A stretch of 64,000 nt of DNA from a virus: positions 1 to 64,000 of IMG/VR virus record IMGVR_UViG_3300049215_000227; one strand, 5' to 3'. Of this stretch, positions 45,618 to 50,602 are shown piece after piece (position 1 is the first letter of the stretch; each line of letters opens with the position of its first letter). The notes under the pieces were generated by a model, which worked only from the letters and a program-made list of their open reading frames with translations, did not search any database and was not told the origin of the DNA. Position numbers and translations under genes: made by a program.

Positions 45618-46355
45618 ATGGGAATCAGAGAAGACTTTCAACCTTACGTAGACGGCAACAACTTGATGGCACCGCACCAGGTTGCACCCAACTCTGGCAG
45701 GGGTTCTGACAATGGAACCATGTACACGAGCGAGTACTTCATCATGCTGAAGAAGAACAGCGTGCTCACCGAAGAGGACAAGGAAGACTACGAGGATCGA
45801 ATTGAGCCGTGCATCGACCTAGAAGGAATGCTCAACCGTGCACCGAATGACTCCGATCAAGAAGGACCGGACGACTACTATGGGGTTCTCAACGGCTGCA
45901 TGGAGCTGGGAAACGTCTCGATCCCGCGAAGATTCCTGAAGGCCTTGATCCGCAACCTTGGCTTCTTGAACAATAGCCAGCCGGAAAAATGGACGCTGAA
46001 CTCGTTCTTGGCTCGCCAGATGCAACTTACTTGCTGCATGGTTAACGCCTCATTCCCTAGTTGGGTAAACCCTCTTCACTGGCTGGTACGAATTTTAGCC
46101 AGCCCACTGTATCTCTACAGCGCAATCTGCTTGCTCGTCAGCTGCATCGGTACGGATACCGGAGACACGGACGCCAGGAGACTCGCTTGGCATCTCGGAA
46201 ACAACGTTGGCAAGAGATCGCTCCTGTGCTGGCTGGCGTACAAGGTTTGGCTGCGAAGACTTTACAAGGATTATGCTGGCGGGATGAGCGACGTCGCGAA
46301 GATCTATTACGGACCCGCGGGAGATAACGCTTACAGTAGATGGTGGCGCACCTAG
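45618..46355 (+). CDS. Conserved phage protein with hydrophobic segments
   Basis: 245 residues. The N-terminal half contains SDNGTMYTSEYFIML and DQEGPDDYYGVLNGCMELGN, a signature I know from uncharacterised proteins in other phages. The middle has two hydrophobic helices (FPSWVNPLHWLVRILASPLYLYSAICLLV) and the end has ARRLAWHLGNNVGKRSLLCWLAYKVWLRRLY. It may sit on or in the membrane. The role is unknown. It ends in TAG within the 3' end of the tRNA on the other strand. Confidence 0.7.
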   Translation: MGIREDFQPYVDGNNLMAPHQVAPNSGRGSDNGTMYTSEYFIMLKKNSVLTEEDKEDYEDRIEPCIDLEGMLNRAPNDSDQEGPDDYYGVLNGCMELGNVSIPRRFLKALIRNLGFLNNSQPEKWTLNSFLARQMQLTCCMVNASFPSWVNPLHWLVRILASPLYLYSAICLLVSCIGTDTGDTDARRLAWHLGNNVGKRSLLCWLAYKVWLRRLYKDYAGGMSDVAKIYYGPAGDNAYSRWWRT

Positions 46356-46418
46356 AGGGACTCGAACCCCCGTCGCACGATGTTAGAGATCGCCGTTCTG
46401 CCGCTGAACTATAGGTGC
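46344..46418 (-). tRNA. tRNA with CUA anticodon (amber suppressor)
   Basis: 75 bases with a seven-bp acceptor (GCACCTA/TAGGTGC), D arm GTTC/GAAC, anticodon stem GCGAT/ATCGT, loop CTCTAAC (U33, anticodon CUA), five-base variable region, T arm GGGGG-TTCGAGT-CCCTC, discriminator G and an encoded CCA. All arms pair. It should read UAG. The amino acid is unclear; G73 is compatible with Gln or Trp types among others. Confidence 0.85.
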
Positions 46419-46423
46419 AAGAT

Positions 46424-46499
46424 TGGAGATCCCAGCGGGATTCGAACCCGCGACCGTGCGATTTAGAGTTGCCCGCTCTACCAACTGAGCTATGGGATC
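46424..46499 (-). tRNA. tRNA with CUA-like loop and weak anticodon stem
   Basis: 76 bases: acceptor GATCCCA/TGGGATC, D arm GCTC/GAGC, T arm GCGGG-TTCGAAT-CCCGC, discriminator U and encoded CCA. By standard numbering the anticodon loop is CTCTAAA, giving CUA. The stem GGCAA/TCGCA has only three of five pairs. The rest is well formed, so the anticodon arm is either degenerate or recently changed. Confidence 0.7.
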
Positions 46500-48357: not shown

Positions 48358-48624
48358 TTACTTCTTAAGGCCTAAGTCCTCTTCAAACTCAGCATCTGTG
48401 TACACGCTATCTACAACAACCCTTAGGGCGTCCCGAAAAGCCATGCCTAGGGCATTACGCATCACTTCTAAGTTCTGTAACTCTTCTGGACCATAATGAT
48501 GACCATAATGGGTGCGGTTATAGTAACTTTGTTCCAAGTAGTGCCTCATGTTGTAATAAAAGGTCCACTCAGCGGCCTGTGCAGCTTGCTCAATTACTTC
48601 TTCTTTAGGCTTCTTAAAATTCAT
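48358..48624 (-). CDS. Hypothetical protein
   Basis: 88 residues, helical: KPKEEVIEQAAQAAEWTFYYNMRHYLEQ, YGPEELQNLEVMRNALGMAFRDAL. No family is recognised. The ATG overlaps the helicase stop (ATGA). Probably co-translated with the helicase. Confidence 0.55.
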   Translation of the reverse strand: MNFKKPKEEVIEQAAQAAEWTFYYNMRHYLEQSYYNRTHYGHHYGPEELQNLEVMRNALGMAFRDALRVVVDSVYTDAEFEEDLGLKK

Positions 48625-50012
48625 AGGATCTTTACCTTGTCCGTAATTTCCCTATAGTACTCGACGCGATTGAACCCGTGCCGAGAGAGCATGGTTGAGC
48701 CCATTGGGATGTAATCCAAGACGATGCACTTGGTCTTAGAGTCTTGCTTCCTGAGGCCTCGACCCACGGCCTGAATCACTGGTCCCTTGCTAGCTACAAA
48801 GTTAGCTAGAACGAGGACGTCAACGTTCTTCGTGTCTGATCCCTCGCCGATCTTTCCGTCTGTCCCAACGAGACCAGGAATCTTCCCGGCATTTAGCTGC
48901 TCGACGTACTCTTGGCTCTTTGAGTCGATGCCGGTCGCAAACGGAATTCCCAGCTCTTTACTTAGTTTTTTTCCGTGCTCCACTTCGTCTACTAGGATCA
49001 AAACGGATTTTCCAGCGGCCATCATCTTCTGCGCGTCGTCACGGATCTGCGCCTTCATGATGTCGCTGTTGAGAACGTGTTCCTTATAAGACTTGATCTT
49101 GTCATCCTTGAAATCGCGCCCGATGGTTGGGACTTGACGAACGAAGAAGTATGGCTCCGCAAGCCAGCCGTTATCAACTCCCCACTTGATGTCGCGACGA
49201 ATCAATACCGGACCGCAGCCAGCAGTGATCATTATGTCTTTACCATCCGACCGGTAATCGGTAGCGGTAAGCCCAAAGATCTTTCCAACATTCGCAAGTC
49301 CTTGTGAGATATCAAAGAATGTGGTAGCTGGGGTGTGGTGCGTCTCATCAAGAATAACCACACCCAGTTCTGCGTTCTTGAAGTCGTCGATGTTCTTAGT
49401 AATTGAAGCAGCGATACCAACCGTAATGTCGCCAATGCGTTTCTTTCCGCCGCCAAAGAATCCGACCTTTTGCTTTCCAAAGCACGATTCAAAGAGTTCA
49501 TAAAACTGAAGCGCCACAGATTCTGATGGACATACAACGAGAGCCTTCCTCTTGTATTTTTGAATGAAGTGCGTTGCGAGAAGCGTCTTGCCCAACCCCG
49601 TAGCGAGGTTAATAAGACCGCGCGGATTGCGCATCATGAGGTCAACTGCTTCCTCTTGATAGTCTCGCAGAGCGTGAGGCTTGTTGACCCACGGAAGAGT
49701 TACTTTTGCTCCTGTCTGACCGCGAAGATCTAAGGGAGTCAAGCAGTTAAACTTATCCTTCAGCATCTCGACGAAGCACGAGGACACGATTAGCTTGTCA
49801 CCATCTTCCTCGTAGAGTTGTCCCTTAACTTCTTTTTGAAGTTGTGCATACGCTGGGGAATTACGAAGGTACATGTTCTTCGCCATGCGCCTAAGTTGAT
49901 ACTGTTTTGACTTATCGGTGTAAGTCAAGTGCTTCTTCACAAACTCCTGCATCTCGATCGAAGGATCTCTGATGATTAGCTTGTCGTTATAGATTGTGAC
50001 ATGGCTCAACAT
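48621..50012 (-). CDS. SF2 DNA helicase (UvsW-like)
   Basis: 463 residues. Motif I is NLATGLGKTLLATHF, motif II is VVILDETHH (DEXH), motif III is GLTATDYRSDG, and motif VI is QAVGRGLRK. A small N-terminal domain precedes the core as in UvsW. Such helicases remodel recombination and fork intermediates. It is transcribed leftward from the divergent region at about 50.03 kb. Confidence 0.85.
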   Translation of the reverse strand: MLSHVTIYNDKLIIRDPSIEMQEFVKKHLTYTDKSKQYQLRRMAKNMYLRNSPAYAQLQKEVKGQLYEEDGDKLIVSSCFVEMLKDKFNCLTPLDLRGQTGAKVTLPWVNKPHALRDYQEEAVDLMMRNPRGLINLATGLGKTLLATHFIQKYKRKALVVCPSESVALQFYELFESCFGKQKVGFFGGGKKRIGDITVGIAASITKNIDDFKNAELGVVILDETHHTPATTFFDISQGLANVGKIFGLTATDYRSDGKDIMITAGCGPVLIRRDIKWGVDNGWLAEPYFFVRQVPTIGRDFKDDKIKSYKEHVLNSDIMKAQIRDDAQKMMAAGKSVLILVDEVEHGKKLSKELGIPFATGIDSKSQEYVEQLNAGKIPGLVGTDGKIGEGSDTKNVDVLVLANFVASKGPVIQAVGRGLRKQDSKTKCIVLDYIPMGSTMLSRHGFNRVEYYREITDKVKIL

Positions 50013-50031
50013 GATCGGATTCTACTCAGTG

Positions 50032-50037
50032 TATAAT
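50032..50037 (+). promoter_or_regulatory. -10 box of structured leader RNA
   Basis: GTGTATAATTGAGAGG: TATAAT six bases before a likely start at about 50044, which is the first base of the terminal helix of the RNA below. Confidence 0.6.
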
Positions 50038-50043
50038 TGAGAG

Positions 50044-50228
50044 GTCAGCGCCGGCGTGGAAGGACACGCATGCAAGGTAGACTGGGGAAGGCACGGCCGG
50101 ATGAGCTAGGACTAAACTCATCGAACACCCTAGGACGATGCTAGTGCGCAGGATCACTTGCATAGATTTCGCAGAGGCATATCACTAGCGCCCACTGCGA
50201 CAGCTGGAATCAAGCCCAGCGCGCTGAC
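50044..50228 (+). ncRNA. Highly structured RNA with interlocking pseudoknots
   Basis: No gene is present. GTCAGCGC (50044-50051) pairs with GCGCTGAC (50221-50228). Inside are GCGTG/CACGC (50054-58/65-69), ATGCAAG/CTTGCAT (70-76/157-163), GATGAG/CTCATC (100-105/117-122), CTAGG/CCTAG (106-110/129-133), GCTAGTG/CACTAGC (140-146/183-189), TCGCAG/CTGCGA (169-174/195-200) and GCTGG/CCAGC (203-207/216-220). The third crosses the sixth, the sixth crosses the seventh, and the loop of the fourth pairs outside. That is 49 base pairs in 185 nt, all Watson-Crick. It ends eight bases before the HNH gene. Class unknown; possibly HEARO-like. Confidence 0.75.
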
Positions 50229-50236
50229 TCAATTTT

Positions 50237-50602
50237 ATGCGCTACTCAAGTCATAACGTTTTAGTTAGTGATCCCCACCCCAAGAGTCTAGCCGCTCTAG
50301 TCTTGCTCACCAAGAAACTTGCACCTCGTCCACTCGGATACAAGGAGTGGCTTCGCTATCGTAAGTGGTATCTGCGCGAGCACTGGAGAAAGCACAGAGA
50401 TTTCCGCTGCGCCTACTGCGGTAAGAGTGGACTCAAGAAGACTACTGACTACGACGATCAGCTTGCAACTCTAGATCACGTCAAGCCTTTATCTAAAGGT
50501 GGAGAGCGATTTCACTCTTCTAACCTAGTTGTCGCTTGCTATTCCTGCAACAGCAAGAAGAAGGACAAATCCGTAGAAGAGTTTTTAAAACCGATCGTAT
50601 AA
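50237..50602 (+). CDS. HNH endonuclease
   Basis: 121 residues. FRCAYCGKSG, LATLDHVKPLSKGG and NLVVACYSCNSKKKDK make a complete HNH/Zn motif like that of Cas9/IsrB-type and homing HNH domains. There is no RuvC part. No ribosome site lies before the ATG; the structured RNA ends eight bases upstream, so its folding may affect translation. It could be a homing nuclease using the RNA or inserted next to it. Confidence 0.85.
   Translation: MRYSSHNVLVSDPHPKSLAALVLLTKKLAPRPLGYKEWLRYRKWYLREHWRKHRDFRCAYCGKSGLKKTTDYDDQLATLDHVKPLSKGGERFHSSNLVVACYSCNSKKKDKSVEEFLKPIV

What the first reader, a model, noticed from the sequence alone, without database searches (positions are those of the whole stretch)
50044..50228. 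New-looking RNA with interlocking pseudoknots directly before an HNH gene
The gap between the helicase (leftward) and the early genes (rightward) holds no gene but has eight all-Watson-Crick helices totalling 49 bp in 185 nt. An exact eight-bp helix closes the ends. ATGCAAG/CTTGCAT crosses GCTAGTG/CACTAGC, which crosses TCGCAG/CTGCGA, and CTAGG in a hairpin loop pairs with CCTAG outside. A TATAAT box places the 5' end at the closing helix. The 3' end is eight bases before an HNH gene with no ribosome site. HEARO RNAs are known beside HNH-type IsrB genes, but this protein is only 121 residues and has no RuvC. It may be a ribozyme, a regulatory leader or a guide-like RNA.
Basis: partly seen in the sequence, partly recalled or inferred. 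Interest (0 to 1): 0.9.

Follow-up and report, generated by a model that had tools for sequence, protein, structure and literature searches.

The report
Widespread phage RNA with swappable head
The gap before the HNH gene encodes one of a large, apparently uncatalogued family of small structured RNAs found in hundreds of bacterial viruses, with a constant tRNA-like frame holding a head that differs from virus to virus; it has no fixed tie to the HNH gene and its job is unknown.

Summary
All eight helices (49 bp) are present and the segment folds better than 200 shuffles (z -3.5). Relatives prove the RNA. The frame of 50044-50228 is: closing helix P1; CG linker; 5-bp hairpin PA, loop GAWGGA; variable middle; 5-bp hairpin PB, loop WAUCAAGC; P1 again without a gap. 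It recurs in at least 211 phage and prophage sites, with no hits in a reversed-sequence control. In 40 of them 99% of pairs form, and 16 of 17 pairs show changes on both sides (0/500 shuffles). The CTAGG/CCTAG pairing is not supported. The RNA is 93% identical to L003, whose flanking genes are only 68-70% identical. No Rfam family matches. The HNH link is incidental: related phages have the gene without the RNA, or another RNA without the gene. PA, PB, linker and P1 match the geometry of a tRNA D arm, T arm, positions 8-9 and acceptor stem, so I read it as a tRNA-like frame carrying an exchangeable head, probably a stable trans-acting phage RNA. Function is unproven.

The parts
50044..50228 (+). 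the structured RNA (transcript may start at 50043)
50019..50037 (.). overlapping divergent promoter -10 elements: TATAAT 50032-50037 rightward (RNA), TAGAAT 50024-50019 leftward (helicase)
   Evidence: sequence; kept in L003, L004, L005 and L002. Consensus match only, no transcript data
50044..50051 (+). P1 5' strand GTCAGCGC (acceptor-stem analogue)
   Evidence: pairs 50221-50228; C-G to U-A double change in L372; P1 paired at depth 1-7 in 149-165 of 167 members
50052..50053 (+). two-nt linker CG (same length as tRNA positions 8-9)
   Evidence: CG 198, CA 12, CC 1 of 211
50054..50069 (+). hairpin PA GCGUG-GAAGGA-CACGC (16 nt, D-arm-like, invariant GG)
   Evidence: loop GA(N)GGA kept while all five pairs covary
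50070..50202 (+). hypervariable middle (133 nt here; 38-176 nt in the family)
50070..50076 (+). helix a 5' strand ATGCAAG (pairs 50157-50163)
   Evidence: CCAACG/CGTTGG at the matching place in L372, hand-placed because MAFFT misaligns the 5' strand; CTGAGG/CCTCAG in L005
50100..50122 (+). hairpin d GATGAG...CTCATC (lineage-specific)
   Evidence: one compensatory pair with L003; absent from L372
50140..50146 (+). helix b 5' strand GCTAGTG (pairs 50183-50189, crosses a and c)
   Evidence: three double compensatory changes in L372, no broken pair
50169..50174 (+). helix c 5' strand TCGCAG (pairs 50195-50200)
   Evidence: one double compensatory change in L372, no broken pair
50202..50202 (+). 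conserved A just before PB
   Evidence: A in 210 of 211 members
50203..50220 (+). hairpin PB GCUGG-AAUCAAGC-CCAGC (T-arm-like)
   Evidence: 18 stem types around one loop; two double changes among W, L003 and L372
50221..50228 (+). P1 3' strand GCGCTGAC, no gap after PB
50237..50602 (+). HNH endonuclease gene, 121 aa; neighbour, not part of the RNA system
   Evidence: Pfam HNH_5 9.6e-11, no RuvC
48621..50012 (-). ResIII/UvsW-like helicase gene; divergent neighbour
   Evidence: Pfam ResIII 4.4e-23

Best explanation
50044-50228 is a member of a large phage-specific family of small structured RNAs (shown). The family has a constant frame (P1, linker, PA, PB) and an exchangeable middle (shown). In this lineage the middle is two stem domains joined by a crossing helix, a x b x c (shown by compensatory changes). 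The RNA is transcribed rightward, with its 5' end set by the -10 box just before P1 (inferred from sequence, kept in relatives). The frame probably folds as a tRNA-like elbow: P1 as the acceptor stem, PA as the D arm whose invariant GG meets the UC of the PB loop, and PB as the T arm stacked on P1 (inferred from geometry and invariant loops). The RNA probably works in trans as a stable RNA: the tRNA-like frame gives stability and access to tRNA-binding host factors, while the variable head contacts a host or rival target that differs between phages (inferred, weakest step). The HNH gene downstream is incidental.
For: Covariation: 99.0% of cells paired, 16 of 17 pairs with a change on both sides, score 0.725 versus 0.166 shuffled (0/500) and at most 0.112 when slid. 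RNA strand: in the first seven P1 pairs G-U 28 versus A-C 7. tRNA-like geometry: P1 paired in at least 149 of 167 down to depth 7, 127 at depth 8, 93 at depth 9; 2-nt linker; PA 16 nt with GG where tRNA has G18G19; PB 5 bp, zero gap, loop U/A-A-UCAA-GC. In the tRNA elbow residue 19 pairs with C56 and residue 18 inserts into the T-loop (PMC4810234). Pseudoknots: helices b and c fully compensated in L372; L005 shows the same topology with other sequences, shuffle rank 0.017. Selection: W versus L003 172/185 in the RNA while HNH is 68%, helicase 69-70%, third codon positions 42-46%. Separate unit: no constant neighbour and RNA or HNH alone at the same site. Exchangeable heads: tandem copies with unrelated middles in L176 and L084. 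tRNA mimicry hint: an Rfam tRNA match (34.9 bits, gathering 29) inside the middle of the Pseudanabaena phage Pan3 member. Restricted to phages and prophages: 8 hits in 84,980 genomes and 1 in 369, with a strict pattern.
Against: There is no CCA end, about half the members extend P1 beyond 8 bp, and the PB loop has 8 nt instead of 7. The GG and UC do not vary in the core set, so their contact has no covariation support; in the diverged L373 group the PB loop is CGCUAAAU. Nothing shows expression. Intrinsic terminators are not enriched downstream (8 of 165 versus 10 random). Kissing or crossing topology is only modestly enriched across the family: 13.8% of middles of 79-100 nt at p <= 0.017. Near-identity with L003 could partly reflect recent exchange. 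The pairing percentage is inflated because members were chosen by a pairing descriptor; one search is the less biased figure for P1.
Confidence: 0.42

Rival explanations
1. A cis-acting leader of the HNH mRNA (riboswitch, translation enhancer or stabiliser): the RNA starts at +1 and ends 8 nt before an ATG that has no Shine-Dalgarno.
For: Position and promoter. The yjdF riboswitch is a known case of a tRNA-like fold regulating translation in cis (PMC9142559).
Against: L002, L374, L376, L378 and L379 carry the HNH gene without the RNA; L376 and the L373 group have a separate -10 box just before the HNH ATG. Elsewhere the next gene is on the other strand in 52 of 133 cases and belongs to no single family.
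Confidence: 0.2
2. The two conserved loops are a protein binding site (for a phage or host protein) and there is no tRNA-like fold; the RNA is a protein-bound scaffold.
For: Only loops, linker and one A are invariant while the stems covary.
Against: No constant protein-coding neighbour, so the protein would have to be a widespread host one. The tRNA arm lengths and zero gap would be coincidence.
Confidence: 0.25
3. Guide or omega-like RNA for the adjacent HNH nuclease (HEARO/IsrB-like).
For: Adjacency to an HNH gene here and in L003, L005 and L372.
Against: HNH domain only, no RuvC; no Rfam HEARO match; nearly all other members are not next to HNH genes.
Confidence: 0.02
4. A DNA element (single-strand hairpin site, packaging or replication signal) and not an RNA.
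For: Free-standing intergenic position; some members lie next to terminase or lysis genes.
Against: G-U pairs exceed A-C mismatches 28 to 7 in P1 and dominate in PB, which marks one strand as RNA; a -10 box places +1 at P1.
Confidence: 0.06
5. A self-cleaving ribozyme or processing signal, for example an RNase P or RNase Z substrate that trims phage transcripts.
For: tRNA-like elements recruit RNase P in other systems (PMC4810234); some members lie near tRNA genes, 17 of 19 on the same strand.
Against: The predicted 5' end here needs no processing; the strong conservation of the whole middle is not needed for a mere cleavage signal.
Confidence: 0.12

Closest known systems
tRNA and viral tRNA-like structures (TLS)
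   Same: end helix of 7 bp or more, 2-nt linker, 16-nt D-arm-like hairpin with GG, 5-bp T-arm-like hairpin with UCAA, zero gap to the end helix
   Different: no CCA, P1 often longer, 8-nt T-like loop, anticodon arm replaced by 38-176 nt of unrelated sequence; not found by ARAGORN or the Rfam tRNA model
T4 species 1 RNA (rnaC)
   Same: stable phage RNA of 139 nt from a tRNA cluster, ends with a T-arm-like hairpin CCGGG-UUCGAAU-CCCGG
   Different: no PA hairpin, other T-loop; not a member by the frame
tmRNA
   Same: tRNA-like ends enclosing a pseudoknot-rich middle (own knowledge)
   Different: no tmRNA found by ARAGORN in either phage record; no CCA; no Rfam tmRNA match
GOLLD, ROOL and OLE ornate RNAs
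   Same: large structured bacterial RNAs (PMC12286853); GOLLD and ROOL occur in phages (own knowledge)
   Different: several times longer (own knowledge); no Rfam match
HEARO / IsrB omegaRNA
   Same: RNA beside an HNH gene
   Different: no RuvC-HNH protein, no Rfam match, not HNH-linked elsewhere
yjdF riboswitch
   Same: tRNA-like fold in a non-tRNA RNA (PMC9142559)
   Different: cis-regulator with an aptamer; no Rfam match here

Membership tests
new phage RNA family (this one) | P1 >= 6 of 7 pairs, 2-nt linker, PA 5 bp + GA(N)GGA, PB 5 bp + WAUCAAGC, no gap | tested here: met
   window is one of 211; only hit in its own 176,504-base record
new phage RNA family (this one) | compensatory changes in P1, PA and PB | tested here: met
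   16 of 17 pairs, 0/500 shuffles
tRNA / tRNA-like structure | T-arm-like 5-bp hairpin stacked without gap on an end helix of at least 7 bp | tested here: met
tRNA / tRNA-like structure | 2-nt linker and 16-nt D-arm-like hairpin with GG | tested here: met
tRNA / tRNA-like structure | canonical 7-nt T-loop UUCRANN | tested here: inconclusive
   8-nt loop UAUCAAGC or AAUCAAGC; UCAA fits, one extra nt
tRNA / tRNA-like structure | D-loop/T-loop contact (G19-C56) | not testable with these tools
   GG and UC invariant in the 211 members, so no covariation; needs structure or probing
tRNA (true) | anticodon arm, CCA end, hit by tRNA finder | tested here: not met
HEARO / IsrB omegaRNA | Rfam HEARO match | tested here: not met
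   no hit to any Rfam family at E <= 10
HEARO / IsrB omegaRNA | adjacent RuvC-HNH protein | tested here: not met
   121 aa, HNH only
tmRNA | tmRNA model match | tested here: not met
GOLLD / ROOL / OLE, phi29 pRNA, known self-cleaving ribozymes | Rfam model match | tested here: not met
T4 species 1 RNA | same frame (PA hairpin with GANGGA loop) | tested here: not met
   rnaC sequence read

The most novel reading that the evidence does not exclude
A phage-wide class of tRNA-elbow scaffold RNAs that display interchangeable heads, used as host-specific decoys or counter-defence RNAs, with dedicated RNA slots where different structured RNAs replace each other (as at this divergent promoter).
Probability: 0.2. 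Interest if true: 0.93.

Novelty: new variant of a known kind. Interest (0 to 1): 0.8.

Why it matters
A structured RNA shared by phages of Alpha- and Betaproteobacteria, a cyanobacterium and others, absent from Rfam 15, with near-perfect covariation, is a rare find. Its frame looks like a tRNA elbow while its middle changes completely, even between tandem copies in one phage, the pattern expected of a scaffold that presents different binding heads. If it is a decoy or regulator, it would be a general RNA tool of phages. Cultured phages carry it (Caulobacter phage DMCA, Acidovorax phage AP1, Komagataeibacter phage phiKX1, Pseudanabaena phage Pan3), so it can be tested directly.

Tried and rejected
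Nucleotide search of phage records with the whole region: only a short HNH match. Rfam at gathering and relaxed thresholds on window and relatives: no family for the RNA. Unconstrained pseudoknot-chain search over 83 middles: little above shuffles; a constrained version shows modest enrichment. Gene-neighbour association by PHROGs: none. Terminator enrichment: none. A shared activator box upstream: the conserved ATTCTAC turned out to be the divergent helicase -10, and the 18-mer is not enriched in the window. Direct pairing of the variable bases of the PA and PB loops: no such pattern. Literature: searches for the motif sequences, for tRNA-like phage RNAs and for phage structured-RNA surveys gave nothing matching; subscription journals and bioRxiv are not covered, so an unheld description is possible. 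No covariance model was built; a sequence-and-pairing descriptor was used in its place.

Full report
1. What is in the sequence. The window segment 50044-50228 reads as described. The segment folds to -70.7 kcal/mol against -56.8 +/- 3.9 for shuffles (z -3.54). It lies between a leftward ResIII/UvsW-like helicase gene (48621-50012) and a rightward 121-aa HNH gene (50237-50602). TATAAT at 50032-50037 places +1 at about 50043/50044; the conserved ATTCTA just upstream is, on the other strand, the -10 (TAGAAT) of the helicase promoter (and the sequence). No Rfam family matches, even at E up to 10.

2. First relatives. Close HNH relatives show four states at this site: L003 has the same RNA; L005 has a different version followed by a second RNA (RNA-B); L004 has RNA-B alone; L002 goes straight from promoter to HNH. 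The L005 version shares little more with the window than the closing helix, CGGCGUGGAUGGACACGC and GGAAUCAAGCCC.

3. A large family. Searching viral contigs for those motifs brought in many unrelated phages with the same layout. Named carriers are Caulobacter phage DMCA, Acidovorax phage AP1, Komagataeibacter phage phiKX1 and Pseudanabaena phage Pan3, plus replicons of Sinorhizobium and Roseomonas and a few bacterial contigs, mostly betaproteobacterial. A descriptor (P1, 2-nt linker, PA with loop GA(N)GGA, PB with loop WAUCAAGC, no gap) finds 211 members in 3.31 Mb and none in reversed sequence. The strict pattern is rare in bacterial genomes (8 in 84,980; 1 in 369), so this is mainly a phage and prophage RNA.

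4. Proof of structure. P1 is paired in 149-165 of 167 members at depths 1-7 and falls off after 8 (127 at depth 8, 93 at depth 9); in the first seven pairs G-U outnumbers A-C 28 to 7, which marks the + strand as RNA. A scan that fixed only PB found members whose PA stem differs at every position with the loop kept (GCACG/CGUGC, GCGCU/AGCGC, GCGUU/AACGC, AUGCG/CGCAU, ACUCG/CGAGU, ACCGC/GCGGU and others). On 40 scaffolds, 99.0% of cells pair, 16 of 17 pairs have changes on both sides, and no shuffle or slide comes near. Members were picked with a descriptor that asks for pairing, so the 99% is partly built in; the P1 figures came from searches that fixed only PA and PB.

5. The pseudoknots. In the window, helix a (50070-50076/50157-50163) crosses b (50140-50146/50183-50189), which crosses c (50169-50174/50195-50200). 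L372, a helicase relative with a diverged RNA at the same site, keeps all seven pairs of b with three double changes, all six of c with one, seven of eight of P1 with one, and all of PB with two. Helix a is CCAACG/CGUUGG there, placed by hand. L005 has the same topology with other sequences (CUGAGG/CCUCAG x AUACCAGU/ACUGGUGU x GCGGG/CCCGU, shuffle rank 0.017). Across the family the topology is enriched only modestly, so other members may carry other heads. Hairpin d is lineage-specific with one compensated pair in L003; CTAGG/CCTAG is unsupported.

6. Selection. Window and L003 RNAs are 172/185 identical, while HNH is 68% and helicase 69-70% identical in DNA, with third codon positions at 42-46%. 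Either the whole RNA, head included, is under strong selection, or it was exchanged recently.

7. Not an HNH device. Among helicase relatives, five keep HNH without RNA, many lack both, and L401 has another structured RNA with a T8 tail and no HNH. Across the family, nearest genes fall into over 100 PHROGs with at most 3 of 90 alike. tRNA genes lie within 1 kb in 19 of 167, 17 on the same strand: a weak link.

8. What it resembles. P1 of at least 7 bp, a 2-nt linker, a 16-nt hairpin with GG at the place of G18G19, a 5-bp hairpin whose loop holds UCAA (U55 C56 R57 A58) and no gap before P1 are the geometry of a tRNA with its anticodon arm replaced. The elbow is built from a residue 19-C56 pair and residue 18 inserted into the T-loop (PMC4810234). 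Differences are the 8-nt T-like loop, no CCA, frequent P1 extension, and a CU in place of UC in the diverged L373 group. The Pan3 member carries a tRNA-model match inside its middle, and T4 species 1 RNA is a known phage RNA ending in a T-arm-like hairpin. I therefore say it works like a tRNA-like scaffold, not that it is a tRNA. The contact between the two loops is inferred.

9. Function. The RNA has no constant gene partner, occurs with either orientation of the next gene, is duplicated in tandem with unrelated middles (L176, L084), and here sits in a slot where different RNAs replace each other. I infer a trans-acting stable RNA whose head meets targets that vary between phages. Confidence: real RNA family 0.97; crossing helices in this lineage 0.9; tRNA-like elbow about 0.5; trans-acting about 0.6; decoy or counter-defence role about 0.2. 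No transcript data were available.

Noticed in passing
L004 and L005 upstream of HNH; L133/L264 (561-kb phage): RNA-B, a second compact RNA (about 107 nt) with conserved AAACGAGURACC...GGUAGGAUGCUCUUAGGA, at the same site as the window RNA in two relatives and free-standing before a terminator in a huge phage; no Rfam match for the L004 and L005 copies.
   Followed up: partly
L372, RNA upstream of HNH: An 80-nt insert sits exactly inside the PA hairpin loop (GA^GGA) of this member and carries GAGGAUGCUCAUAAGGA across its 3' end, reminiscent of RNA-B.
   Followed up: partly
L401, upstream of the helicase: A different structured RNA whose closing helix CGAGAUGU/ACAUCUCG is followed by eight T, with no HNH gene; the same slot seems to host several RNA types.
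   Followed up: no
L373, L399, L402: Diverged member with PA loop GAUAGGGA and PB loop CGCUAAAU, followed by a separate -10 box (TATAAT) directly before the HNH ATG, suggesting a leaderless HNH mRNA.
   Followed up: no
L162:2560-2625 (Pseudanabaena phage Pan3): A tRNA-model match (34.9 bits) with a shortened anticodon region lies inside the variable middle of this member.
   Followed up: partly
window 46344-46499, and G000 125-163 kb: The phage carries 34 tRNA genes, two of them with a CUA anticodon side by side, although TAG ends 42 of 175 long frames, so the standard code seems in use; possible amber suppressors.
   Followed up: partly
L176:1718 and 1931; L084:5284 and 5486: Tandem copies of the RNA frame with unrelated middles in one phage; L084 copies have variant PB hairpins.
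   Followed up: partly
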